Source: Paeniglutamicibacter kerguelensis | GTDB lineage: Bacteria > Actinomycetota > Actinomycetes > Actinomycetales > Micrococcaceae | Direction: 5' to 3' | NCBI RefSeq assembly: GCF_017876535.1 | Contig: NZ_JAGIOF010000001.1 | Location: 992,001 to 1,056,000 of the forward strand | Length of the DNA stretch: 64,000 bases | In this document: in pieces, positions 3,427-31,938 of the stretch | Position numbering within the stretch: position 1 is the first letter of the stretch | How the letters are laid out: the number at the start of each line of letters is the position of its first letter | Notes under the pieces: model-generated | Databases searched by the model: none | Seen by the model: only the letters and a program-made list of their open reading frames with translations | Told to the model about the DNA's origin: nothing | Made by a program: the position numbers and the translations under genes

Positions 3427-4605
3427 ATGATTGGTCGCCCGGTACCCCCGCCACACAATGCCGCCCAACGCATCAACGCCCGCGCCGAGGCGCTCGCCCG
3501 GCAGGCCAAGGACGCAACGGATTCTCCGCCCCCCGGCCCGGAGAAAGTCAGGGCGATGGGCATCGTCGAAGAACACGGTCCGCTCACCGCGCTGGAAATC
3601 GAGCGACGGCAGCCCGGTGCACGCGACGTTGTCATCGAGCTGGAATACTGCGGGCTGTGCCACAGTGATGTCCACGCAGGCCGCGGCGAGTGGGGTGCCA
3701 CCAGGCTGCCGTTGGTCCCCGGCCACGAAATGGTCGGCATCGTCCGCGAGGTTGGCGGGCAGGTGCGCGACCTGGCCATTGGGGCGCGTGTGGGCGTCGG
3801 CTGCCTGGTGGATTCCTGCCGCAACTGCGATGCCTGCCGCGAGGGGCTGGAACAGTTCTGCCGGAACAGCGTCGGAACCTACGGGGCCACCGACCCGAAC
3901 ACCGGCGAATACACGCAGGGCGGCTATTCGCAGAGCATCGTGGTGAACCGCGACTTCGTGCTGCGCATCCCCGACGCGCTGGACCCGGCCGCCGCGGCCC
4001 CGCTGCTCTGCGCAGGCATCACCAGCTACTCGCCGCTGCGCCACCACAAGGTCGGAACCGGCAGCAAGGTCGGCGTGCTGGGCCTGGGCGGGCTTGGCCA
4101 CATGGCCGTCAAGCTGGCCGGGGCCATGGGCGCGAGCGTCACGGTGTTCACCCGCAGCGAGGACAAGCGCGAATCCGCGCTGGCGCTGGGTGCCGAAACC
4201 GTCGTCAACACCTCTGACGCGGAGCAGATGAAAGCCGCCGGCGACTTGCTGAACCTGGTCATCGACACGGTCTCCGCACCGCACGACATCGGCGTGTACC
4301 TTCGGACGCTCAAACGCGACGGGGCACTGGTGCAGCTCTCGCTACCTGCCGAGCCCATGCCCGCCTTCGACATCCGACCGTTTCTCTTCAAGCGCCTGAG
4401 CTACACCGGATCGCCCATCGGGTCGATCGCCGAAACACAGGAAATGCTGGACTTCTGCGCCGAGCACGGCATCGCCAGCGACATCGAACTCACCGACGCA
4501 AACCACATAAATGAGGCCTGGGACCGCATGGTCGCCTCCGACGTGAAGTACAGATTTGTCCTAGATATCGCCACACTCGGCGAGACAGCCAAGGAGGGTG
4601 CATGA
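3427..4605 (+). CDS. Zinc-dependent alcohol/aldehyde dehydrogenase (CAD/YahK-like MDR family)
   Basis: A medium-chain dehydrogenase of 392 residues. The catalytic zinc site is visible as CGLCHSDVHAG (C78) and GHEMVG (H100, E101). The structural zinc site is C131, C134, C137 and C145 in CRNCDACREGLEQFC. The Rossmann nucleotide loop is VLGLGGLGHMAVKLAG. The order of motifs and the GTYGATDPNTGEYTQGGYS segment match the cinnamyl-alcohol-dehydrogenase/YahK branch, which reduces aldehydes with NADPH. The product is about 40 residues longer than usual at its N-terminus, so an internal ATG at 3556 could be the true start. It overlaps the next gene by 4 bases, indicating translational coupling. Confidence 0.85.
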   Translation: MIGRPVPPPHNAAQRINARAEALARQAKDATDSPPPGPEKVRAMGIVEEHGPLTALEIERRQPGARDVVIELEYCGLCHSDVHAGRGEWGATRLPLVPGHEMVGIVREVGGQVRDLAIGARVGVGCLVDSCRNCDACREGLEQFCRNSVGTYGATDPNTGEYTQGGYSQSIVVNRDFVLRIPDALDPAAAAPLLCAGITSYSPLRHHKVGTGSKVGVLGLGGLGHMAVKLAGAMGASVTVFTRSEDKRESALALGAETVVNTSDAEQMKAAGDLLNLVIDTVSAPHDIGVYLRTLKRDGALVQLSLPAEPMPAFDIRPFLFKRLSYTGSPIGSIAETQEMLDFCAEHGIASDIELTDANHINEAWDRMVASDVKYRFVLDIATLGETAKEGA

Positions 4606-5030
4606 GCACACTGTTCACCAAGATCATCAACGGGGAAATCCCGGGCCGCTTCGTATGGAAGGACGAGCACGCCGTTGCGTTCCTGACCATCGGGCCGATC
4701 ACGCACGGCCACACCCTGGTGGTTCCGCGGGTGGAAGTCGACAAATGGACCGAGGCCCCGGCCGAGCTGATGAACCACCTCACCGACGTCGCGGGCAAGA
4801 TCGGTCAGGCCCAGGTGCGCGCCTTCGGTGCCGAACGCGCCGGGCTGATGATCGCGGGCTTCGAGGTTCCGCACCTCCACCTGCATGTGTGGCCGACCAA
4901 CTCGTTGGCGGACTACGACCTGGCCCGGGCGGATGCGAACCCTAACCCGGCCACGATGGATGAAAACGCCGAGAAGCTGCGCACCGCACTGCGCGAAGAC
5001 GGCCACGGGGAATTCGTTCCGGCCAGCTAG
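4602..5030 (+). CDS. HIT-family nucleotide-binding hydrolase
   Basis: A 142-residue histidine-triad protein. It opens with TLFTKIINGEIPGRFVWKDE and carries the active-site motif HLHLHVW at residues 91-97, whose second histidine of the triad is nucleophilic in this family. Members hydrolyse nucleoside phosphoramidates or dinucleoside polyphosphates; the substrate here is unknown. Its ATG overlaps the stop codon of the alcohol dehydrogenase gene (ATGA), so the two are likely one operon that ends at the terminator at 5052-5088. Confidence 0.9.
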   Translation: MSTLFTKIINGEIPGRFVWKDEHAVAFLTIGPITHGHTLVVPRVEVDKWTEAPAELMNHLTDVAGKIGQAQVRAFGAERAGLMIAGFEVPHLHLHVWPTNSLADYDLARADANPNPATMDENAEKLRTALREDGHGEFVPAS

Positions 5031-5453: not shown

Positions 5454-6409
5454 TCAGTTCCAGAATTCCCTGAGCTGCCCGGCAAGGGCCTTGCCTTGGT
5501 CGTAGCCCGCCCGGGCGGCTGGCGGCCGCGTGGCCAGATCCATCATGTTGCTGCCGAAAGCATCCACGGAGGCGGCATCGGGCAAGATGGTCTCGACCCT
5601 GCTTCCGCCGGCGCGGAGCTCGGCGACCTGGGTGGCAAGATCCATGCCCCAGGCCAGCGACGCCCGTGACCGGCCACCCAATGGCGAGAGCACCAACACC
5701 CGCCCGTATCCGGCGGCCAGGTCGGCGTTCTCGCTGGACCGCCGGTAGCCGCCGTCGATGTACCAGCCCCCGCCGATGCGGTAGGGAGGGGCTCCGAAGC
5801 CGAATGAGGTGCTGGCGGCGACGGCATCCACCATGTCGACCCCGCTGTCCCGGTCGAACACCACGGGGTCGCCGGTCCCGGCATCGACCGCGGTGATGAG
5901 CACGTCTTGGTGCGGCCAGTGCGGGCCGGGCAGCCGGCCGGCAACGATGGAGCGCCACCGAGATTTCCAGGATCCCTCCGGATCCGCATCCATCTCGAGT
6001 GAAGCCGCTCCCAGCCGCCGGCGCATGTCCGCCGGATCGCTGGAAGCGGCGATGATCTCGCCGGTCCGGCGCATGTTGTCGGACGCCGACGCCGGGGGAA
6101 TTCGTCCATTGCCGCCGGATCCGGCCCCGCCCGTGGGTTGCGCGGGCGCAGCCGAGAGGATGTCGGCCAGCAACTGGGTCGGGCTCGCGCCGGTGATCTG
6201 GGCCGCGGCCGTCGCCCCGGCAGAGGTGCCGATGAGCAGGTCGGCAGTGGTCGCATCCAGCCCGCCCTCAAGCAGGCCTGCGATGACGCCGATCAACCAA
6301 GCATTGCCCGCCGATCCGCCGCCCCGAGGACCAGCGCCCGCCGGTCAGTGGCGTGCACCGGAGCGAGGGCGTCGAACAGCGGCTGTTCCCGGCCGGGCCC
6401 CGTCAGTCC
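5454..6409 (-). pseudogene. Patatin-like phospholipase, main part; 5' end cut off by IS110 and internally frameshifted
   Basis: The translation shows a patatin-like lipase: nucleophile elbow GTSAGATAAAQ and catalytic Asp loop DGGYRR, with the conserved NAWLIGVIAGLLEGG before the Ser. The expected glycine-rich oxyanion loop (VLGGGGSAGNAW) is only restored if one G is added to the G4 run at 6322-6325. Upstream of that the frame reads on as PLFDALAPVHATDRRALVLG to 6409, where it meets the IS110 element. Members hydrolyse acyl esters of lipids. With an insertion and an indel it is almost certainly inactive. A GTG at 6358 is a possible restart but has no good ribosome site. Confidence 0.75.
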
Positions 6410-6547: not shown

Positions 6548-7765
6548 TCAGGCGACGGCGGCCTCCGGCGCCTCATAGACGGTGCCGTCGCGCAGCATCG
6601 CGAACAGGACGTTGCACCGGCGGCGGGCCAACGCGATCACGGCCTGGTTGTGTTTCTTTCCCTCGGCGCGCTTCTTCTCGTAATAGGTCCGGGACGTGTG
6701 GTCCTTGCATTTGAGCGAGGCGAACGCGGAAAGGAAGAAGGCCCGTTTGAGGGTCTTGTTGCCCTTGCGGGAGGAATGGTCCCCGCGGATGGAGGTCCCG
6801 GATCTCCACGTCACCGGCGCCAGCCCGGCGTAGGAGGCCAGATGGCCTGGTGTGGCGAATTCCTTGCCGACGACCTCGGTGAGGATCCTGGCTTGGGTGC
6901 GGATCCCGAACCCTGGCATGGAATCAAGGATGAGGTGCAGCGGGTGGGCCCGGACGATTTCCTCGACCCGGCCCAGGACCGCGGCGCGGGCTGCCCGGGT
7001 TTGGGCGAGCATGCGGGCGAGTTCGGGAAGGACGATTCCTGCCGCGTCGGTGCCTGAAACGACGACGCTTTGGGCTGCCAGCGCCGCGCTGATGTCCCTG
7101 GCCCAGCCCTTCCACGCCCGCGGTGCGTGCTTGCGCAGCAGGGCACCGATCCGGGCTTCCCCGGCCCGGCGCAGGGCGGCCGGCGTGGGGTATTTGGCCA
7201 TCAGCTCGGCCATGGCCACGTGGTCCAGGTGCTTGCCGATCACGCGTTCCAGGGCCGGGTGGACCTGGGTGAGCAGCCCGCGGATCCGGTTGGAGGTCGC
7301 GGTGGCCGCCTTGGCCAGGTCGTCGTCGAATCCGCAGAGCATGGCCAGCTCCGCCACCTGAGCCTCCGGGACCTCGACGGTGCGCAGGGCGTGCGGCATG
7401 GTGCGTGCCGCGTTGGCGATGATGAACGCGTCCCGGGCGTCGGTCTTGGCTTCGCCCGGGTGCAGCTCGGCGATCCTGCGCATTGCCAGCCCGGGCAGGT
7501 ATGCCACCGGAATGCCTTGGGCCTGGGCGACGGCGACGGGCAGGGCGCCGATGGTGGCCGGCTGGTCCACGACGAAGAGCAATCGCCCGTGCTTGGACAG
7601 GGATTTGATCAGGGCGTTGAGCTTGGCTTCGTCCTGCGGCAGGGCCTTGTCCAGCAGCTTCTTGCCCGCCCGGTTCAGGGCCACCGCGTGGTGGTTGGAC
7701 TTGCCGACATCGACGCCGATGAACACGTCGATGGTTTCATGGTCCTTGATCACTGCGCACCTCAT
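6548..7765 (-). CDS. IS110-family DEDD transposase
   Basis: A 405-residue recombinase. The N-terminal RuvC-like DEDD domain shows FIGVDVGKSNHHAVAL (first Asp), LLFVVDQPATIG, and EAKTDARDAFIIA (last acidic pair). The C-terminal Tnp_20 domain shows DSMPGFGIRTQARILTE and the serine-bearing YAGLAPVTWRSGTSIRG. IS110 enzymes cut and join the element through RNA-guided recombination using a bridge RNA made from the element's own non-coding end. Start choices are the ATG at 7765 or a GTG at 7753 that has GAGGTG in front; the latter may be the better one. No frameshift or stop is seen. Confidence 0.92.
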   Translation of the reverse strand: MRCAVIKDHETIDVFIGVDVGKSNHHAVALNRAGKKLLDKALPQDEAKLNALIKSLSKHGRLLFVVDQPATIGALPVAVAQAQGIPVAYLPGLAMRRIAELHPGEAKTDARDAFIIANAARTMPHALRTVEVPEAQVAELAMLCGFDDDLAKAATATSNRIRGLLTQVHPALERVIGKHLDHVAMAELMAKYPTPAALRRAGEARIGALLRKHAPRAWKGWARDISAALAAQSVVVSGTDAAGIVLPELARMLAQTRAARAAVLGRVEEIVRAHPLHLILDSMPGFGIRTQARILTEVVGKEFATPGHLASYAGLAPVTWRSGTSIRGDHSSRKGNKTLKRAFFLSAFASLKCKDHTSRTYYEKKRAEGKKHNQAVIALARRRCNVLFAMLRDGTVYEAPEAAVA

Positions 7766-8391: not shown

Positions 8392-8440
8392 TCAACCCAC
8401 CGCGACGAGAACCGCCAGAATGCTCAAGGCCAGCGACACG
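8392..8440 (-). pseudogene. 3' remnant of a split membrane-protein gene
   Basis: On the minus strand this reads VSLALSILAVLVAVG then a stop. It is a hydrophobic ending that completes the membrane protein broken at about 12091: that gene reaches RLAMTPVV and then runs into unrelated IFRENQ. Together they give a natural C-terminal helix. The 3.65-kb segment 8441-12093 lies between the two halves. A precise target duplication is not visible. Confidence 0.6.
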
Positions 8441-8453
8441 GTTGTCATTTTCC
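8441..8453 (+). repeat. Left 13-bp inverted repeat of the 3.65-kb segment
   Basis: GTTGTCATTTTCC, perfectly inverted at 12081-12093. Bases 8442-8458 (TTGTCATTTTCCTCTAA) also recur in direct orientation at 12043-12059. Confidence 0.65.
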
Positions 8454-8456
8454 TCT

Positions 8457-8489
8457 AAGTCGACTGCACAGTCAGAAGTCGACTGCACA
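8457..8489 (+). repeat. Tandem 14-base repeat near the left end
   Basis: AAGTCGACTGCACA occurs at 8457-8470 and again at 8476-8489, a 19-base period. Repeated short blocks just inside the end are typical of transposase-binding sites in IS21-type elements. Confidence 0.6.
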
Positions 8490-9041
8490 AGCTCGAGGCC
8501 TGAACCGTTCGAAAAGGCACCGTACCCAGAGGGTGACCCATTGGTTGTGAATCGCAACGGTAAATGGTTCTGGCACGAATTTCGTGAACCGGGGACCGGT
8601 ATCCGCGGTCCGGCGCCGGCGACGGCGGCCGTGCGCCCGCCGCGACAGCACCCCGCGGTTCGGTCACGGGAACCCCAGCCACTGTCAGGCCAAGCGAGGC
8701 ATGGGCCGTCTTTCTATACTTCTTGCCCGCGGGGTGGTATGAACCAGACGAAACCAGACCAGCAGCCAGCGACACGGCGCCGCAGACCTGGAACAACCAA
8801 CCGGAGACTATCCCGACCCAGGTGGAGATGCGTTCGGCAACTCTTCCAATCTTTGCCCATCCCAGAAACCGGTGACTTCGTTTTTGTTGATGGGGTCTTG
8901 GGGGGCGTAGGTGATGTTGCCGCCGTGACGGGGTCGCGGGTAGTGAAGAGCCCGGCGAGGATGTTGTAGAGGCGGGCTCCCATGAGGATGCGTTGTCCGG
9001 ACGATGCCGTGGTGCGTGCGACCATATTGGGTGTGAATGAC
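8490..9041. other. Region with no intact gene; possible eroded coding traces on the minus strand
   Basis: No reading frame here is convincing as a whole. On the minus strand, short stretches in different frames look protein-like, for example NITYAPQDPINKNEVTGFWD near 8880-8930 and a hydrophobic WVGIVSGWLFQVCGAVSLAA near 8770-8830. This may be a heavily decayed membrane or plasmid-type gene. The right end holds the start region of the gene chimera at 9042. Confidence 0.35.
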
Positions 9042-9927
9042 ATGGGCATGGCGCAGGCCGAGCGGGAAGACATCGAGGACCTTCTGTCGACCTTCACGCC
9101 CGAGCAGTGGGACGAGGCCTCGCTGTGCGGGGGCTGGCGCGTGCGCGACGTGGTCGCCCCATATGGTGTCCTACGACGGCCTCGACCGCACCGGTCTCCT
9201 GCGCCGGTTCGCCAAGGGCCTCCTGATCCGGGCCAATCAGGTCGGGGTCGACGAGACGGCGCACCTGACGATCGACGGACTGCTCGACGTCGTCCGGGTC
9301 CACCTGCGGCCGTGTGGACTGACGGCCGGATTCGGTGGCCTGGTCGGGCTCGTCGACGCCACGATCCACCACCAGGACATCCGCCGTCCGCTCGGGCTCC
9401 CGCGGCAGATTCCGGCGGACCGGCTGGCACGCGTGCTCACGGCCGTGACGACTAATCCCCGCCTCGAGGTCTGGCGGCGGATCCGAGGCGTACGGCTCGT
9501 CGCGACGGACCTCGACTGGTCCCACGGAAAGTGGCCCGAGGTCCGCGGCACGGGCGAGTCGCTGCTCATGGCCATGATCGAATCGAACATGCTCGCTGTC
9601 GAATGCCACCTGCATCGCAAGCACGTCCCGCCGTGGTGCTACATCTCCATCCGGGACCCTGACCAGATCGGCAAGGAGCTCGCTCCGGGGGAGGGGGCCA
9701 TCGCCGTACTGGACGCCCTCAACACCAGCTACCCCGGTTTCCTCCTCACCGACGACGTGGGCGACGTCGAGACCGGTACCTGCGGGTGCGGGAGAACCGG
9801 CCAGGTCATCAACTTCCGCGGTCGGGGGCCGGGTGGCGGGCTTGGCCATTGCCCCGTCAGCATCGAGCGCTACCTCGGTTCGGGCACCACCGCCCACGAT
9901 GAGGCGGCGGCCCTCGTGAAGGCCTGA
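9042..9927 (+). pseudogene. Frameshifted chimera: maleylpyruvate-isomerase-like domain joined to LuxE-like C-terminal part
   Basis: The first part reads MGMAQAEREDIEDLL, then EQWDEASLCGGWRVRDVVA in one frame. After an extra C in the C4 run at 9157-9160 it continues HMVSYDGLDRTGLLRRFAKG, VDATIHHQDIRRPLGLP and VATDLDWSHGKWPEVRG, the pattern of mycothiol-dependent maleylpyruvate isomerase-like (DinB-fold) proteins. From about 9580 the sequence switches to ECHLHRKHVPPW, FLLTDDVGDVETGTCGCGRTG and so on, typical of the C-terminal region of LuxE-type acyl-protein synthetases/AMP ligases. The AMP-binding N-terminal part of LuxE is absent. A deletion or recombination fusion is more likely than a designed two-domain enzyme. 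Confidence 0.65.
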
Positions 9928-9939
9928 GTTCGCGGCGCC

Positions 9940-11028
9940 TCAGCCGGCGCCCTCCTCCGTTGCCGCGCCCATGGCCAGGCCGCCCTCGATGCTGCCGAGC
10001 GAAACCGTCGCGCTCATGAGCGTTTCGGTCATCTGCTCCAGCATGGCCATGTCGACGTTCTCGATGGTGTCGCAGGCCTGGTGGTAGCACTCGTCGTACT
10101 GCTCCCCGGCCTGCCCGCCGAAGGTGCGCGCCTCGGCCTCGCTCTTGGTCCCCGCGTCGCCGGTGAACAGGCCCCCGGTCGGGATGCCGCCCTTCACGAA
10201 CGCGTCGTAGTCCGAATCCTCGATGAACCCGAACGGCAGCGCCTGGACCCCCTCGGCCCGCAGGATGTCCTGGAACACCCGTTCGATGGCGCCAGACCCC
10301 TCGGGCCCGGCCTCCTCGCTGTCCGAGCCGTCGCCGTCGTACACGAAGACCACCGCGTTCGGCGAGCCCACCACGTCGACGTTCAAGTACGCGACGTGCG
10401 CGGCGGTTTCCTCGCGGGAGAGTTGCTCGACGTAGTATTCCGAGCCGTGCATTCCGTCCTCCTCGCCACCCCAGAACGCGAACCGGATCCGCTCCCGCGA
10501 CACGGCGCCCTCCTCCGCGAGCCGCAGCGCGACCTCGAGCACCGCGGCGACCCCGCTGCCGTTGTCGTTGAGCCCGGGTCCCTCCTCGACCGAGTCCAGG
10601 TGCGCGCCGAGTACCAGCACGCTGCCGGAGCTACTGCCGGTGTCGGCCAGGATGTTGAACGCGTCCACGGGGTTGCGCCGGCCGTAGCTGAACTCCTGAC
10701 GCCGCGGCTCGTACCCCGCCGCACGCAACTGCTCCTCGACGTACGCCGCGGACGCCTCGTAGCCCTTGGTGGCGTCGGCCCGGTTCCCACCAGTCGCGTC
10801 CGCCGCATCCTGGAACGCCTCCAGATGCCGGGTCAGCGCACTGGGCTCCACCACTTCCTGCACGAAAGAAGGGGCCGGCGGGGCCTCCACCCTCACAGGC
10901 GGCCGTGGCTCGCCCGAACATGCGGCAACGCCGCCAGCCAGTGCCGCGCACAGCGCAACGGTCCACAGCCGGGTGCGGCGATGAGGATGGTTGTGGAAAC
11001 GCTGCGGAACGGATTCTGCATGTCGCAT
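9940..11028 (-). CDS. Lipoprotein M28-family zinc aminopeptidase
   Basis: A 362-residue predicted lipoprotein. Arginine-rich N-terminus and hydrophobic core end in the lipobox GVAAC with the acylated cysteine near residue 37. The M28 zinc ligands are visible in order: GAHLDSVEEGPG (H143, Asp), LNDNGSGVAA (bridging Asp), WGGEEDGMHGSEYY (catalytic Glu pair), NVDVVGSPN (Asp) and HQACDTIEN (last His). The protein should remove N-terminal amino acids from peptides outside the membrane. Codon third positions are even more GC-rich than in neighbouring core genes, and the gene sits in a segment bounded by inverted repeats, so acquisition from another actinobacterium is plausible. Confidence 0.85.
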   Translation of the reverse strand: MRHAESVPQRFHNHPHRRTRLWTVALCAALAGGVAACSGEPRPPVRVEAPPAPSFVQEVVEPSALTRHLEAFQDAADATGGNRADATKGYEASAAYVEEQLRAAGYEPRRQEFSYGRRNPVDAFNILADTGSSSGSVLVLGAHLDSVEEGPGLNDNGSGVAAVLEVALRLAEEGAVSRERIRFAFWGGEEDGMHGSEYYVEQLSREETAAHVAYLNVDVVGSPNAVVFVYDGDGSDSEEAGPEGSGAIERVFQDILRAEGVQALPFGFIEDSDYDAFVKGGIPTGGLFTGDAGTKSEAEARTFGGQAGEQYDECYHQACDTIENVDMAMLEQMTETLMSATVSLGSIEGGLAMGAATEEGAG

Positions 11029-11121
11029 GTGATCTCCCCCAAGTCTGCGTCTTCGACGCTCATGGACACATTCTAGGGCGGGAGGGCTAGCCCCCTACAT
11101 AGCACCTGCCTGTGCCTTTGC
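11029..11121. other. Upstream region of the M28 peptidase gene
   Basis: Short region between the peptidase start and the transposase scrap; it should contain the peptidase promoter. A GGGGGAGATCACATG stretch on the minus strand before the start supplies the ribosome site. Confidence 0.35.
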
Positions 11122-11238
11122 TGTGAGCGGCTGGCCGGTGGCTGACCCTTGGGCGAGGTGTGCCCGCGGTGACGATTGTAGCCGTGCAGCCAGGCGCCGA
11201 TCGCTGCGACGCGTTCGACCTCTGACCCGAATCCGCGA
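11122..11238 (-). pseudogene. C-terminal scrap of an IS481/IS3-type integrase-core transposase
   Basis: The minus strand reads ERVAAIGAWLHGYNRHRGH followed by GQPPASR. This matches the W-x-x-x-Y-N-x-x-R-x-H...PP/TPA-x-R ending of DDE transposases of the IS481 and IS3 groups. The DDE catalytic part is absent. Only the family type, not the exact element, can be read. Confidence 0.55.
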
Positions 11239-11697
11239 GTAGTGGCTTTTGGGGCTGGATTTTCCGTGGGGGCCTGAATTTCGGTGGATTCTTGGGTCCG
11301 GGCCATGACGATGGCCCGGTTCCCGTGCCGGGTGGGCGGAGGTTCCATGGCCTCGGGTGGTCTTTCTCTTGGTGTGTGGAACAAGAGGAATCCGTGCGTC
11401 AGCCGGGGGACGGGGACGGCAGTTCTTGTAGGGGTGGGACCCAAGTAAGCCAGAAACCTGCCACGCTCCATGGCGGGGAATGCATGGTTCTAGATTCGGG
11501 ACAGACGGATGAGCGGTACGGAAATTCACGCTAAGCGGTTCAGCCCTGACCAGACCGTCCTTGCTCTGAACATAACCATCCCGTAAGGGGAACCTTCCAT
11601 CGGGATGGTGAAAGAACGAGGCTTCATCCCCTCGAAAAATCCCCTGAGTATTCTGGTTGTGAATACGTGGGATACTAATCGGTCGCTGGAAGGGTGC
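11239..11697. other. Region without a recognisable gene
   Basis: About 460 bases between the transposase scrap and the small membrane-protein gene. Reading frames here look non-coding. The last 100 bases fall in GC content and likely carry the promoter of the gene starting at 11698. Confidence 0.4.
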
Positions 11698-12027
11698 ATG
11701 AACGTGTGGAAGTGGACGGTAATGACGCCCGTTCAGGCATTGCGTTGGATGATTCCTGGCGGGCTGGCGTCACTGACCTTGTTCGGGCTCTTGGCCTTCA
11801 ATACGCATCCACTGATGATCCTGGTAGTTACGATCGTCGGCCTATTGCTTTCCCTGGTCGTGTTTGTTTGGGGGACCACCAAATTTCGCAGCTACTACGA
11901 GATTCAACGCACTCGAAGCGATTATTGGACAATGCTCTACGCGACCCTGATTCAGATAGCGGCAGTTGCTGTCTCGGCATTCTTGTATGTTCAATTACTC
12001 GGCGCAGCTGAACGCATGAATGCCTAG
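11698..12027 (+). CDS. Small integral membrane protein of unknown function
   Basis: A 109-residue protein starting MNVWKWTVMTPVQALRWM, with three probable membrane helices at about residues 16-36, 38-58 and 82-104, and a charged loop RSYYEIQRTRSDYW between the second and third. The ATG follows GGAAGGG at good spacing; an upstream in-frame ATG at 11605 lacks comparable support. GC content is clearly lower than that of neighbouring genes. I do not recognise the family. It lies inside the 3.65-kb segment, next to its right end. Confidence 0.55.
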   Translation: MNVWKWTVMTPVQALRWMIPGGLASLTLFGLLAFNTHPLMILVVTIVGLLLSLVVFVWGTTKFRSYYEIQRTRSDYWTMLYATLIQIAAVAVSAFLYVQLLGAAERMNA

Positions 12028-12042
12028 CATCAGGCCCTTGTA

Positions 12043-12092
12043 TTGTCATTTTCCTCTAATTCTTCTTCATTGGTTTTCCCGGAAAATGACAA
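12043..12092. repeat. 50-bp inverted-repeat-bounded unit at the right end of the segment
   Basis: TTGTCATTTTCC (12043-12054) is perfectly inverted at 12081-12092 around 26 bases. Its left half matches the left end of the 3.65-kb segment for 17 bases in direct orientation. It could be two abutting element ends or a very small non-autonomous element. Confidence 0.55.
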
Positions 12093-12442
12093 CAGGAGTC
12101 ATGGCCAGTCGTTCGCGGCTGCTTTTCGAGAAGAGGTTCTGCACGATGCTCAGTACCAGGAAAGCGGTGCTGGCCCTCATGGCTGCGGTGCTGAAGCCGG
12201 TCCCCGGGAACGAATGAATGATGCCGGCTCGGTCTAACGCCACCATGGCGAACAAGGCATAGATCAAGATCGCCAGGGCGCTGCCAACGCGCGTTCGAGA
12301 GGGGAGTACTTGGTGCCGGCCGCCCCAGGCGAAAGACCCCCCACGGTGCGCCAAGTACAAGCATGAGTTGTAACAGCGCCAAGAGGCCGAGCAGTCCGAG
12401 GAACAGCATCAGGGGAAGGATCATCATGCTCCGAAGACGCAT
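12067..12442 (-). pseudogene. Small membrane protein, frameshifted and truncated by the 3.65-kb segment
   Basis: The frame starting at 12442 gives MRLRSMMILPLMLFLGLLGL and reaches LVLGAPWG. It is then continued in another frame by SFAWGGRHQVLPSRTRVGSA. Removing one G from the G6 run at 12337-12342 joins them into the GAPWGxFAWGG..VLP..RxGSA pattern found in small four-helix membrane proteins of Micrococcaceae. The helices ALAILIYALFAMVALDRAG and STAFLVLSIVQNLFSK follow. The sequence then reads RLAMTPVV and passes into the inserted segment; the missing hydrophobic end is at 8392-8440. Function unknown. Confidence 0.65.
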
Positions 12443-12727: not shown

Positions 12728-13357
12728 TCAATTGCGGAACTTGAGCTCAACTTCAATGTCAGAATCAATGCCCTGGACGATGTTCTTGTAGTAGACGGAC
12801 GTCTGATCTTTCAAATCCGCTTCATTGGAATCAATGTACTGGTCTTTGGCCTCGTCGCTGAGGATGTTGTTGACCATTTCGACAGCGTCAATTTCTGGCG
12901 TAATCCAACTCAGAACACCATTGTTCTCGGTGACCAACCGAAAAGTCTCATCGTCGTGGCCGATGAAGATGAACTTTGGAAAGGAAATAAGAATCTTGTC
13001 TCCAGACGACTCGTACTTCACGTCCTTGCCATCGAAGCCGAGTTTCGCCTTGAAGCCATACTGAATTAACGAGACTCTCGAACTTCCGGGAACTTCGATT
13101 CCGAAGAAATTGCTTTGACCGTTCTTTTCAGAAATGCCCTGGATGCCCAAACTCAGCAGTACGACCTGCTCCTCGCGGGTAAGGGAGTCGATGACTTGTG
13201 AATTGCGGCTTTCGGAATTGTTGCTAAAGGGAAGGAAATTGAGCATGCCCTGCGGTGCCCTCAGTGCGCCAACCGCAGCCAGCCCGAAAACCACAGCTAT
13301 GCAGAGACCGGTAAGCAGAGCACGCCACAAAGGCACTTCTTTTCTAAAGAAACTCAT
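12728..13357 (-). CDS. Membrane-anchored hypothetical protein of low GC content
   Basis: A 209-residue protein with one N-terminal membrane segment (about residues 10-32, LLTGLCIAVVFGLAAVGAL) and an outside domain of about 170 residues. The domain contains VVLLSLGIQGISEK, GDKILISFPKFIFIGH and a long acidic C-terminal region. The arrangement resembles DUF4230-type single-pass proteins, but I could not confirm this. Its codons are much less GC-rich than those of the surrounding genes, suggesting acquisition from a different host. The ATG at 13357 was chosen because it directly precedes the membrane segment; a longer version to 13399 is possible. Confidence 0.6.
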   Translation of the reverse strand: MSFFRKEVPLWRALLTGLCIAVVFGLAAVGALRAPQGMLNFLPFSNNSESRNSQVIDSLTREEQVVLLSLGIQGISEKNGQSNFFGIEVPGSSRVSLIQYGFKAKLGFDGKDVKYESSGDKILISFPKFIFIGHDDETFRLVTENNGVLSWITPEIDAVEMVNNILSDEAKDQYIDSNEADLKDQTSVYYKNIVQGIDSDIEVELKFRN

Positions 13358-13659
13358 TGATATTTCCAAACCTTCATTCGGCTGTTTTGCTTGTTGCAAC
13401 GGTCCATCGTAATACTCGCCTGAGGCTGTGACAGCGAGGAAACATGCAATGTTGCCTTCTCGTGGTCATGCGCGATTCCATCGACCACGGCAAGGTCGAA
13501 CACAACCACGTGAGCCACGGCATCATCGACAACGGTTCGGGCCACTGTTCCAGGGGCGCAACCGCGGGTCCGCCAAGCCAACGATGTTGGGATCCTTCAG
13601 GCCATCAGTTGCGCAGCTCTTCATGGTCACGTTCACATGAAGCTTGGAAGATGACAGGT
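13358..13659. other. Region between the low-GC gene and ISAs1; possible gene remains
   Basis: No complete gene. The minus strand contains a protein-like stretch, VARTVVDDAVAHVVVFDLAV, without start or family match. The ISAs1 copy inserted at its right edge, so any gene here was probably already broken. Confidence 0.35.
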
Positions 13660-13743: not shown

Positions 13744-13801
13744 GTAGGAACCCCTGTTAAGCATGTGAATATCAGCCCACATGTTTTACAGGAGTTCCTA
13801 C
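13744..13801 (+). promoter_or_regulatory. Hairpin covering the ribosome site of the ISAs1 transposase
   Basis: Bases 13744-13767 can pair with 13778-13801 over 24 positions with two mismatches and one G-U pair, around a 10-base loop. The right arm contains the AGGAG ribosome site (13790-13794) and ends one base before the GTG start. Transcripts entering from outside the element would fold this hairpin and block translation, a known protection device of insertion sequences. Confidence 0.6.
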
Positions 13802-14944
13802 GTGCCATCTTCGCACCTGCAAGAGTTCATTGCCCAATTCGACGGCCACGCACCTGTAACCCTCAACCCGCAGGAGGTCCTTGCCGCGCTGGCCGGACTG
13901 CCGGATCCGCGGGCCAGGCGCGGTGTTCGCCACGGGTTCGCCCACCTGCTGGTGATCATGGTCTGCTCGGTGGTGGCCGGCGCGAAGACCCTGGTGGAAA
14001 TGGCCGAATGGGCCGCGGACACCGCACGGTCGGAGTTGGCAGTCCACGGAATCGGTTCACCGCATGCGACCACGCTCGCCCGGGTTTTCGAACGACTCGA
14101 TGCCGCGTCCATGGACCTGCTGGTCTCGGACTGGGCGCAGCAGCGGAGCAATCCGGCGGCGATCGCCGTGGACGGCAAGGAACTGCGCGGTGCCAAGAAT
14201 GGCAAGGGAACCCGCGTCCACCTCATGGCGGCCATCGACCAGGACACTCACGAGGTGCTGGCCCAGGTGTCGGTGGACGGGAAAACCAATGAGATCACGC
14301 AGTTCCCGTCGCTGATGGACCACTTCACCAACCTGAAGGGCGTGGTCGTCACCGCCGATGCCTTGCACACCCAGACGGGCCACGCCCGCTACCTGGCCGG
14401 CCGCGGAGCCCACTACATCTTCACCGTGAAGGGGAACCAGCCCACCCTGCTGGACCAGTTGGCGCAAAGCCCCTGGGAGCAGGTCCCGGCGGGCAACCGG
14501 AGCAGGTCCAAGGCCAACGGCCGGCAGATGATCCGCACGGTCAAATGCGCCACCCTGAACCCGGGCATCGGCTTCCCGCACGCGGAACAAGCCATCCAAA
14601 TCACCCGCAAATCACGGGTCGTCGGCGCCACTACCTGGCACCTCGAGACCGTCTACGCCGTCACCTCGCTGCCCACCCACCAGGCCAGCCCGGCGCAACT
14701 CGGCGCTTGGGTGCGTGGACACTGGGGCATCGAAAACGGCCTGCATTGGCGCAGGGATGTCGTTTGGCAGGAGGACAAATCCCAAATCCGCACCGGAAAC
14801 ACGCCCCGCGTGATGGCCATCCTGCGGAACATCGCCATCACCCTGCTCAAGCGCCACGGCCACAACAACATCGCCAAGGCCACCCGGAAACTCAGAAACC
14901 ACCCCGGCCAAGCGCTCGAAATCGCGGGAATCGGCTCACGCTAA
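13802..14944 (+). CDS. ISAs1-family transposase
   Basis: A 380-residue DDE transposase when started at the GTG seven bases after AGGAG; an upstream ATG at 13781 is inside the hairpin and lacks its own site. It has the N-terminal DUF4338/ISAs1 region with LAGLPDPRARRGVRHGFAHL, then the catalytic core: AIAVDGKELRGAKNGKGTRV (first Asp), VVVTADALHTQTGHARYL (second Asp), and the RGHWGIENGLHWRRDVVWQED block containing the catalytic Glu. It moves the element by cut-and-join using the 19-bp ends. No interruption is visible. Confidence 0.93.
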   Translation: MPSSHLQEFIAQFDGHAPVTLNPQEVLAALAGLPDPRARRGVRHGFAHLLVIMVCSVVAGAKTLVEMAEWAADTARSELAVHGIGSPHATTLARVFERLDAASMDLLVSDWAQQRSNPAAIAVDGKELRGAKNGKGTRVHLMAAIDQDTHEVLAQVSVDGKTNEITQFPSLMDHFTNLKGVVVTADALHTQTGHARYLAGRGAHYIFTVKGNQPTLLDQLAQSPWEQVPAGNRSRSKANGRQMIRTVKCATLNPGIGFPHAEQAIQITRKSRVVGATTWHLETVYAVTSLPTHQASPAQLGAWVRGHWGIENGLHWRRDVVWQEDKSQIRTGNTPRVMAILRNIAITLLKRHGHNNIAKATRKLRNHPGQALEIAGIGSR

Positions 14945-30558: not shown

Positions 30559-31938
30559 ATGCCTGGCGTATCGAACGAAGAGCTCGCGAAGCGCATCGCG
30601 GAGCTTGAGGAAGAGAACCGCATCCTCAAGAACAAGGGCGGTGTATCGCCTCCGGGGTCCCTGCAGGCGACCACCGAACCCACGCCCCGCAAACCGCGCA
30701 GCTGGCCGTGGACGTTGCTGGCGACCGTTCTGATCGTGATCGGGGCGCTCCTCGCCCCGACGGCGATTGCTGCCTCCTGGGCGAAGATCGAGCTCACCGC
30801 CACCGACCGCTTCGTCGCCGCATATGCCCCGCTGGCCGACAATCCTGCGGTTCAAGCGTTCGTGGCGGACGAAGCGTCCAAAGCCATCGACCAGCACATT
30901 GACGTCCACAAATTGACTTCGGATATTATCGACGGCGTCACGGCACTCGGCACCGGCCCGTTGGCGACGAAGGCGCTCGAGTCCATGAAAGGTCCGGCTG
31001 CAGCGGGCATCCAAAACCTCATGCACAGCACCGTCGCCAACTTCGTCTCCTCAGATGCCTTCGCCGTCGTCTGGAGGGAAGCCCTGCGGGTCTCCCACAG
31101 CCAATTTGCCGGCGCCATGCAGAACGACCCGAATGCTGCGTTGCAGGTCGGCGGGGACGGAAGCCTTGGCATTGAACTCTCGCCGGTGATCGCCGCAGTC
31201 AAGAAAGCGCTTGTGGCGCAGGGCATCGACATCGCCAACCAAGTTCCCGAAGTAAACAGGACGATCGTCGTTGCCCAGTCGGATGCGGTGCCACGGATCC
31301 AACTCGCCTACGGGTTGGCTGTCGCGGCCGGCACCTGGTTGCCGTGGGCGTCGCTGCTCTTCCTTGCGGCGGGCGTCCTTGTTGCCCGGCGCAAGGTGGT
31401 GGCATTGATCTGGGCGGCCATCGCGTTGGCGCTGGCGATGGCGATCACGGTGGCGGCTCTCGCGGCCGGAAACATCGTCTTCCTTGCATCCGTCAGCCCG
31501 TCGCTGCTCCCGGGTGACGTCGCCGGCCCGGTGTATGCAACTGTGGTGGAATTACTGCAGACAGTCAGTACGGCCATCCTTGTGCTCGCCGTCGCTGTCG
31601 CCGTTGTCGCTTGGTACGCCGGGCCGTTCCGCACGCCACGGCGCCTTCGTGGATTCTTCGGGCAGGGGATGAAGCAGGTCCGCGAAGCCGCACAACGCCA
31701 CGGAATAAGCACCGGACGCACGGGGGAGTGGCTCTATCGCCAACGGCTACTGCTCCGCCTCGTGATCGCCGTTGCAGGGGCACTGGTCATTCTCTTCGTG
31801 CGGCCGCTGACGGCAGGCGTGGTCATCTGGACGCTGGTGGCAGCCGTCATTGCTGTGGTGGTTCTTGAATTGCTCCAGCGTCCGGCCGGCGATGCGCTCC
31901 CGGCTGCGGATGCGGAAACACAGGTCCCGGTGGCGTAG
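30559..31938 (+). CDS. Coiled-coil multi-pass membrane protein, unknown function
   Basis: A 459-residue protein. The first 28 residues form a leucine-zipper-like coiled coil (SNEELAKRIAELEEENRILK), followed by a Pro-rich linker and a membrane helix (WTLLATVLIVIGALLAPTAI). An outside domain of about 190 residues (FVAAYAPLADNPAVQAFVAD and onward) precedes two or three further helices, a basic loop FRTPRRLRGFFGQGMKQVRE and two last helices. Similar proteins are widespread but uncharacterised in actinobacteria. The ATG follows AAGGGGA. It may have a role in envelope organisation, but nothing here proves it. Confidence 0.75.
   Translation: MPGVSNEELAKRIAELEEENRILKNKGGVSPPGSLQATTEPTPRKPRSWPWTLLATVLIVIGALLAPTAIAASWAKIELTATDRFVAAYAPLADNPAVQAFVADEASKAIDQHIDVHKLTSDIIDGVTALGTGPLATKALESMKGPAAAGIQNLMHSTVANFVSSDAFAVVWREALRVSHSQFAGAMQNDPNAALQVGGDGSLGIELSPVIAAVKKALVAQGIDIANQVPEVNRTIVVAQSDAVPRIQLAYGLAVAAGTWLPWASLLFLAAGVLVARRKVVALIWAAIALALAMAITVAALAAGNIVFLASVSPSLLPGDVAGPVYATVVELLQTVSTAILVLAVAVAVVAWYAGPFRTPRRLRGFFGQGMKQVREAAQRHGISTGRTGEWLYRQRLLLRLVIAVAGALVILFVRPLTAGVVIWTLVAAVIAVVVLELLQRPAGDALPAADAETQVPVA

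What the first reader, a model, noticed from the sequence alone, without database searches (positions are those of the whole stretch)
8392..12442. A membrane-protein gene split in two by a 3.65-kb segment with 13-bp inverted-repeat ends
Seen directly: GTTGTCATTTTCC (8441-8453) is perfectly inverted at 12081-12093. The minus-strand gene from 12442 reads to RLAMTPVV at the right end. The strand just outside the left end reads VSLALSILAVLVAVG then stop, a natural hydrophobic ending for it. Inside are unrelated genes with different codon use. IS21-type ends begin TGT-CA in this way, but no IstA/IstB genes are present. Either this is a non-autonomous transposon carrying cargo or the product of two element copies.
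Basis: partly seen in the sequence, partly recalled or inferred. Interest (0 to 1): 0.72.

Follow-up and report, generated by a model that had tools for sequence, protein, structure and literature searches.

The report
Stranded Tn402-like transposon inside a gene
A 3.65-kb DNA segment that split a small membrane-protein gene in a soil-type bacterium looks like a transposon of the family that carries class 1 integrons, now without its own jumping genes; it is a new member of a known kind.

Summary
The split gene is real. A relative in the same genus (G001, L019) keeps the membrane-protein gene whole between the same neighbours, and the two window flanks align with it gap-free across the join once exactly 5 bp are dropped. 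The ends are not IS21-type. The left end, TGTCATTTTCC plus two GTCGACTGCAC repeats, is of the Tn402/Tn5053 (TniABQ) kind: a model built without it finds it at E 1.4e-12. A complete tniR-tniQ-tniB-tniA element with such ends and a 5-bp target duplication lies in the congener G005, Paeniglutamicibacter psychrophenolicus. Best reading: a non-autonomous Tn402-family composite, a cargo module plus a transposition core collapsed to 48 bp. Weak points: the flanking 5-mers agree at 3 of 5 only; the right terminus keeps 11 bp; the 13-bp inverted repeat alone is unremarkable (25% of simulations). Known mechanism, new member; interest modest.

The parts
8443..8489 (+). Left end of the element: TGTCATTTTCC plus two GTCGACTGCAC repeats (8457-8470 and 8476-8489), Tn402/Tn5053 type
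   Evidence: Alignment with 10 other ends, 16 invariant columns; model built without it E 1.4e-12, model from 5 plasmid ends E 4e-11; direct repeat D14
12081..12091 (-). Right terminus TGTCATTTTCC; only 11 bp kept, no internal repeats
   Evidence: Inverted repeat I14; only 5.1 bits with the end model; its position fits the 5-bp geometry of the split gene
12044..12082 (+). IRt-type (tniA-side) end core pointing right, inside the right terminus; with 12081-12091 it makes a 48-bp unit
   Evidence: 12056-12082 matches the IRt of the autonomous G005 element at 23 of 27 bases; best place in the window on either strand, next best 18 of 27
8438..8442 (.). Left flanking 5-mer ACGGT (candidate half of a decayed target duplication)
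   Evidence: Sequence; a 5-bp surplus at the join
12092..12096 (.). Right flanking 5-mer ACAGG (agrees with ACGGT at 3 of 5 positions)
   Evidence: Sequence
8392..8442 (-). 3' part of the interrupted membrane-protein gene (VSLALSILAVLVAVG, stop)
   Evidence: Joined-flank alignment with L019 808-1188
12092..12442 (-). 5' part of the interrupted membrane-protein gene, with a one-base frameshift at about 12337-12342
   Evidence: Matches in 12 of 15 genus genomes, own included; alignment with L019
8982..9576 (+). Cargo: frameshifted mycothiol maleylpyruvate isomerase-like gene (MDMPI_N), cut at 9576
   Evidence: PF11716, E 5.9e-6; 68-70% DNA identity from 9034 with G004, G007 and G009, all ending at 9576-9577
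9574..9881 (+). Cargo: fragment of a luxE-like gene, 96% identical to the own chromosome at C1:2633857-2634167
9940..11028 (-). Cargo: intact M28-family peptidase, 362 aa
   Evidence: PF04389 E 1.7e-42; 9929-11180 is 94% identical in G013, 9743-11190 is 93% in G006
11127..11225 (-). Cargo: fragment like the 319-aa transposase ORF at own C1:1993077-1993175 (71%)
   Evidence: 'IS481-like' is my reading of the ORF, not a family search
11605..12027 (+). Cargo: 140-aa membrane-type ORF without a Pfam or NCBIfam match

Best explanation
8443-12091 is a non-autonomous remnant of a Tn402/Tn5053-family transposon. SHOWN: it interrupts a gene that is whole in a congener; its left end is of the Tn402 type; a piece of a tniA-side end (IRt) lies at 12044; no tni gene was found in it; a related autonomous TniABQ-R element exists in the genus. 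INFERRED: a TniA/TniB/TniQ complex, in cis before the tni genes were lost or in trans from another copy, paired the outer ends 8443 and 12091 and inserted the unit, with a staggered 5-bp cut, into the membrane-protein gene. Also inferred: the unit was a composite, as in G005 (6291 + 8557 ... 13405), of a cargo module with its own left end (8443) stacked on a transposition core whose two ends were 12044 and 12091; the core later collapsed to 48 bp, apparently by a deletion joining at GG. The cargo is a mosaic, largely of DNA found elsewhere in the genus (a peptidase gene, gene fragments, a transposase fragment).
For: Uninterrupted orthologue with the same neighbours: the HIT gene (84% identical protein; HIT domain) and the 12728-13399 gene (72%); exact 5-bp surplus at the join. 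Eleven-end alignment. Without the window row E 1.4e-12, plasmid ends alone E 4e-11. G005 element L094 6291-13405: TniA (Mu-transpos_C over its cut-off; rve just under it), TniB E 3e-74, TniQ E 3.2e-20, resolvase E 6.7e-43, TTTTC on both outer sides, a second left end inside; 25 listed plasmid transposases match its TniA over the full length at 63.1-63.7%. 12056-12082 matches the G005 IRt at 23 of 27. Of five exact TTGTCATTTTCC copies in the own genome, three are these and two are other ends of the type; the reversed control pattern occurs once.
Against: The flanking 5-mers ACGGT and ACAGG agree at 3 of 5, so no target duplication is shown. The right terminus has 11 bp and no repeats, and the IRt core next to it points the wrong way. 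The own genome has one Mu-transpos_C match, a 722-aa protein only 24% identical over 336 aa to the G005 TniA, in a cluster with a TniB-like protein (21%); a second TniB match on C4 was not examined. The insertion is not beside a resolvase gene, the family's preferred target. The plasmid ends in the models were fetched by similarity to 8443 (4 of 12 hit records opened), so they are not an independent sample. No copy of the whole unit was found in the other 14 genus genomes.
Confidence: 0.86

Rival explanations
1. A simple, non-composite Tn402-type element whose right-end region (12044-12091) was flipped: the spacer between two inverted TGTCATTTTCC copies inverted, for example by template switching, so the IRt core now points outward.
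For: Read by eye, reversing 12044-12091 would give the expected IRt reading inward from 12091; two inverted 12-bp copies 26 bp apart are a natural substrate (pair I20).
Against: The G005 IRt is not followed by a second inverted TGTCATTTTCC, so an inner copy would have had to exist first; homology with the G005 IRt stops at CCCGG, which looks like a junction.
Confidence: 0.25
2. Two independent insertions (one end at 8443, another element represented by 12044-12091) with later deletion between or beside them; the present segment never moved as one unit.
For: Three ends are present, and the flanking 5-mers differ. Several same-orientation end clusters without a matching duplication exist in the own genome.
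Against: The gene halves meet with an exact 5-bp surplus and no other gap at the join, which two unrelated events plus deletion would match only by luck.
Confidence: 0.12
3. IS21-family non-autonomous element.
For: TGT...CA termini; the G005 TniA has a weak IS21 match (22.7 bits against a cut-off of 160).
Against: Tandem GTCGACTGCAC repeats and the IRt core match a TniABQ element; no IS21 transposase over the cut-off in the own genome.
Confidence: 0.03
4. Not a transposon: an ordinary accessory stretch with a chance 13-bp inverted repeat.
For: 13-bp inverted repeats occur by chance in 25% of simulations; the peptidase block occurs in G006 and G013 without such ends in the 4.3-4.4 kb read.
Against: Interrupted gene with an uninterrupted syntenic orthologue and 5-bp geometry; family-level homology of the left end and of the 12044 core.
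Confidence: 0.02

Closest known systems
Tn5053/Tn402 family of res-site hunter transposons (tniABQ-res-tniR, 25-bp inverted repeats, 5-bp duplications; PMC7765201, passages read)
   Same: TGTCATTTTC terminus with GTCGACTGCAC-type repeats; cargo between the ends; the related G005 element has tniR, tniQ, tniB, tniA, an end beside tniA and a 5-bp duplication.
   Different: The window copy has no tni genes, a truncated right end, no resolvase gene in the segment, and no exact 5-bp duplication.
Tn6006 = Tn6007 + Tn6008, a composite of two Tn402-like units with several IRi/IRt ends that appears to have moved as one (PMC5460862, passages read)
   Same: More than two ends in one unit; cargo module stacked on a core; in G005 too the duplication is at the outer ends.
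   Different: Actinobacterial host, no integron; in the window the core is collapsed to 48 bp and reversed.
tni-deleted Tn402 derivatives (clinical class 1 integrons); movement with machinery supplied in trans is a hypothesis cited in PMC5460862 (passages read)
   Same: Lost transposition genes, kept end, would need TniABQ in trans.
   Different: No integrase, cassette or resistance gene was seen in the segment (Pfam).
IS21 family
   Same: TGT...CA termini.
   Different: No istA/istB found; different subterminal repeats.

Membership tests
Tn402/Tn5053 family | Terminal inverted repeats of about 25 bp beginning TGTC, with subterminal repeats (the 19-bp figure is recalled) | tested here: inconclusive
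   Left end: met, with two repeats. Right end: only 11 bp of terminus; IRt core present but reversed.
Tn402/Tn5053 family | tniA, tniB, tniQ genes (and tniR) | tested here: not met
   None among the 6 ORFs of the segment scanned. Met in the related G005 element. The window copy can only be a non-autonomous derivative.
Tn402/Tn5053 family | 5-bp target duplication | tested here: inconclusive
   The geometry needs exactly 5 bp to be dropped, but ACGGT/ACAGG agree at 3 of 5. G005: TTTTC on both sides.
Tn402/Tn5053 family | Insertion at a res site beside a resolvase gene | tested here: not met
   The target is a membrane-protein gene. Chromosomal non-res insertions, some without duplications, are reported for the family (PMC7765201, passages).
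Tn402/Tn5053 family | Transposition depends on TniABQ | not testable with these tools
   Needs experiment.
IS21 family | istA and istB genes | tested here: not met
   None among the 6 ORFs of the segment scanned; no IstA match over the cut-off in the own genome. istB was not searched for.
IS21 family | TGT...CA termini | tested here: met
   TGTCA...TGACA, but shared with the Tn402-type elements seen here.

The most novel reading that the evidence does not exclude
Paeniglutamicibacter genomes hold many Tn402-type left ends, several of them in same-direction clusters with genes between them (22 matches at E 0.01 or better in this genome). Cargo would be gathered by stacking modules, each with its own left end, next to one TniABQ core, any left end pairing with the single far end; the window segment would be such a stack whose core has collapsed.
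Probability: 0.3. Interest if true: 0.55.

Novelty: new member of a known kind. Interest (0 to 1): 0.36.

Why it matters
It places the class-1-integron type of transposon, best known (recalled) from Gram-negative plasmids, in the chromosomes of a soil actinobacterial genus, with a complete autonomous member and many stranded ends. That makes the stacking of cargo modules by such transposons open to comparison. The window element itself is a decayed example.

Tried and rejected
IS21: rejected. The own genome's cluster at C1:1986.5-1992.5 kb as the mobiliser: it holds a Mu-transpos_C protein, a TniB-like AAA protein, a DUF4379 protein and a 254-aa ORF without a Pfam match; 'Tn7-like' is my reading. 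The first two are only 24% and 21% identical to the G005 TniA and TniB over the aligned parts, and repeats near L034 10620-10740 look different by eye. Against this, two partial matches to the end model lie at L034 2359-2392 beside the cluster (E 0.14 and 0.28), and that stretch resembles the end at C1:3753040 by eye; so a link is not excluded. Hairpin next to the ends: they share a GTCCG...GGAAC...GGGAC block, but RNAalifold on the 28-sequence alignment predicts no pair; no structure is claimed. Five-mers of other end pairs: 1643931/1644896 and 1524116 against 1501218, 1503893 and 1508071 did not match; a G004 pair, read by eye, did not match either. Only the G005 outer pair matched. Orientation of neighbouring ends: 21 same against 9 opposite within 25 kb, p 0.043, hits not independent, so weak. 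IRt-like core in nine own-genome stretches (not the whole genome): none with up to 1 mismatch, two unrelated-looking ones with 2. Whole segment on plasmids: one match of about 70 bp. Right-end stretch on plasmids: six matches in unrelated hosts, taken as chance. The plasmid matches that led to the family had poor E-values one by one (0.5 to 6, 12 records, 4 opened); the claim rests on the alignment and models. Literature: the listings (20, 20, 15 and 1 rows shown) named no Tn402-like element of Paeniglutamicibacter or Arthrobacter in a title; three papers were opened, passages only. PMC3382206 reports intI1 pseudogene or qacE signals in some Arthrobacter isolates, with 0 for tniC in the Arthrobacter rows shown. 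One search matched 4,494 papers, so absence from print is not claimed.
Full report
WHERE IT IS. The window is G000:C1:992001-1056000, a 4.8-Mb genome in 5 contigs. Its genus set contains G005, whose contig C11 (140,544 bases) corresponds in length and in the end found to NZ_JAUSSH010000011.1, Paeniglutamicibacter psychrophenolicus CC174. So the genus is most likely Paeniglutamicibacter.

THE OBSERVATION. The 13-bp inverted repeat 8441-8453/12081-12093 is there. In first-order Markov simulations of the same 5.2 kb, 25% of 200 runs hold at least one such pair, so the repeat alone proves nothing. A third copy, TTGTCATTTTCC at 12043-12054 on the + strand, lies 26 nt from the right arm. In the own genome the 12-mer occurs five times: these three and two at other ends of the same type; the reversed control pattern occurs once.

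THE SPLIT GENE. The right-hand half matches 12 of 15 genus genomes, own included. The nearest homologue, G001 L019 808-1188 (126 aa), lies between the same neighbours as in the window: a HIT-domain gene (window 4602-5030; proteins 84% identical) and the gene at window 12728-13399 (72%). Aligned to it, the two window flanks with all bases kept need a gap of exactly 5 bp at the join; with 5 bp dropped the alignment runs through the join without a gap, and the protein ends MTPVSLALSILAVLVAVG against MAPASLVLSILAVLIAIS. This is the mark of an insertion with a 5-bp stagger. The two 5-mers (ACGGT, ACAGG) agree at 3 of 5 only, so the duplication itself is not shown. The 5' half also carries a one-base frameshift at about 12337-12342.

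THE ENDS. From 8443 the segment reads TGTCATTTTCCTCTAAGTCGACTGCACAGTCAGAAGTCGACTGCAC. Short matches in 12 plasmid records (E 0.5 to 6), four of which I opened, one on a Pseudomonas plasmid named p_intI1_positive, showed the same layout. Eleven such ends align with 16 invariant columns. Model R1 made from them includes 8443 itself, so its 47.7 bits are by construction. Without that row the other ten find 8443 at E 1.4e-12 and the five plasmid ends alone at E 4e-11; the next places in the window have E 0.073 and 0.38. These plasmid ends were fetched by likeness to 8443, which helps the score. The right terminus 12091 keeps only TGTCATTTTCC (5 bits).

THE AUTONOMOUS RELATIVE. In G005 (L094) an end at 6291(+) and one at 13405(-) enclose, from left to right, a cargo pair (TetR regulator, FAD-binding protein), a second left end at 8557(+), a resolvase (E 6.7e-43), TniQ (E 3.2e-20), TniB (E 3e-74) and TniA (Mu-transpos_C over its cut-off, rve at 31.2 bits against 32.6). 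TTTTC flanks both outer ends. This is the gene set described for the Tn5053/Tn402 family in PMC7765201 (passages read), with a composite layout like Tn6006 (PMC5460862, passages read): the duplication spans the outer ends, so module and core probably moved together.

THE THIRD END. Bases 12056-12082 match the G005 IRt at 23 of 27; the next best place in the window on either strand matches at 18 of 27. A gapped pattern for this IRt found one stretch in the genome contig collection, the G005 contig itself (records of the window's own genome may be left out there). So 12044 is a tniA-side end, but it points right, away from the cargo. Homology stops at CCCGG, where the terminal GGAAAATGACA begins. 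I read this as a core (12044 to 12091) reduced to 48 bp by a deletion at GG; a flip of the short spacer is the main rival. On the Pseudomonas plasmid (L037 7001-7062) a similar 62-bp pair, a full end plus a short inverted terminus, was seen.

THE CARGO. It is a mosaic. 8982-9576: frameshifted MDMPI_N gene, 68-70% like G004, G007 and G009, whose matches all end at 9576-9577. 9574-9881: luxE-like fragment, 96% like own C1:2633857. 9929-11190: M28 peptidase block, 93-94% in G006 and G013 and broken in G012, with no end-model match better than E 0.7 in the stretches read. 11127-11225: transposase fragment. 11605-12027: orphan membrane-type ORF. The peptidase protein matches in 4 of 15 genomes, own included. 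None of the other 14 genomes holds the whole stretch; the longest match is 1448 of 3541 bases.

HOW IT WORKS. Most likely a TniABQ complex paired 8443 with 12091 and inserted the unit into the gene (inferred). Today the segment has no transposase gene that I found and a poor right end. The own genome's single Mu-transpos_C match is a 722-aa protein 24% identical over 336 aa to the G005 TniA, so no close TniA is at hand, although two partial end repeats lie beside that cluster. The segment is probably stranded.

BEYOND THE FINDING. R1 gives 26 matches at E 1 or better in the own genome and 22 at 0.01 or better, and at least one in 14 of 15 genus genomes (6 own-genome ends are in the model, and only the 150 best first-look candidates per genome were scored). 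Several lie in same-direction clusters with genes between them. Neighbours within 25 kb point the same way 21 times and opposite ways 9 times, which is weak. Whether these are stacks of cargo modules or decayed single ends is open.

Noticed in passing
G000:C1:165675-178950 and 1489559-1524116 (L087, L088, L030, L031): Clusters of Tn402-type left ends in the same orientation with genes between them; four spacings of about 1.3 kb in the first cluster.
   Followed up: partly
L030 8492-9061 and 9072: A resolvase gene (PF00239) with a Tn402-type end about 10 bp upstream of its start and a partial end repeat at 8464 beyond its stop, like a one-gene module.
   Followed up: partly
A3 alignment, columns after the second repeat: A conserved GTCCG...GGAAC...GGGAC block follows many of the ends in this genus; the window end 8443 lacks an obvious copy. 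RNAalifold supported no structure.
   Followed up: partly
G000:C1:1986.5-1992.5 kb (L034): Cluster with a Mu-transpos_C protein, a TniB-like AAA protein, a DUF4379 protein and a 254-aa ORF, other end-like repeats near L034 10620-10740, and two partial Tn402-type repeats at L034 2359-2392.
   Followed up: partly
G000:C4:509279-509734: Second TniB (PF05621) match in the own genome, in an 842-aa open frame.
   Followed up: no
window 8546-8672: Repeat with GTTCTGGCACGAATTTCGTGAA; relatives at own C1:1964870, 1965027, 1097431 and in G009 C25.
   Followed up: no
window 11430-11500: 70-bp repeat also at own C1:747142, three places on G006 C12 (one partial), and on a Paenarthrobacter plasmid at 92%.
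   Followed up: no
window 6548-7750 and 13781-14944: An IS110-type transposase gene and a DDE_Tnp_1 transposase gene lie on either side of the split gene: an insertion-rich spot.
   Followed up: no
L037 7001-7062: 62-bp unit on a Pseudomonas plasmid: a complete Tn402-type end followed directly by a short inverted terminus, near a recombinase gene; looks like another collapsed core.
   Followed up: no
window 30995-31028: Weak match to the second half of the end model (11.1 bits, E 0.02), with a further piece at 30869-30888.
   Followed up: no
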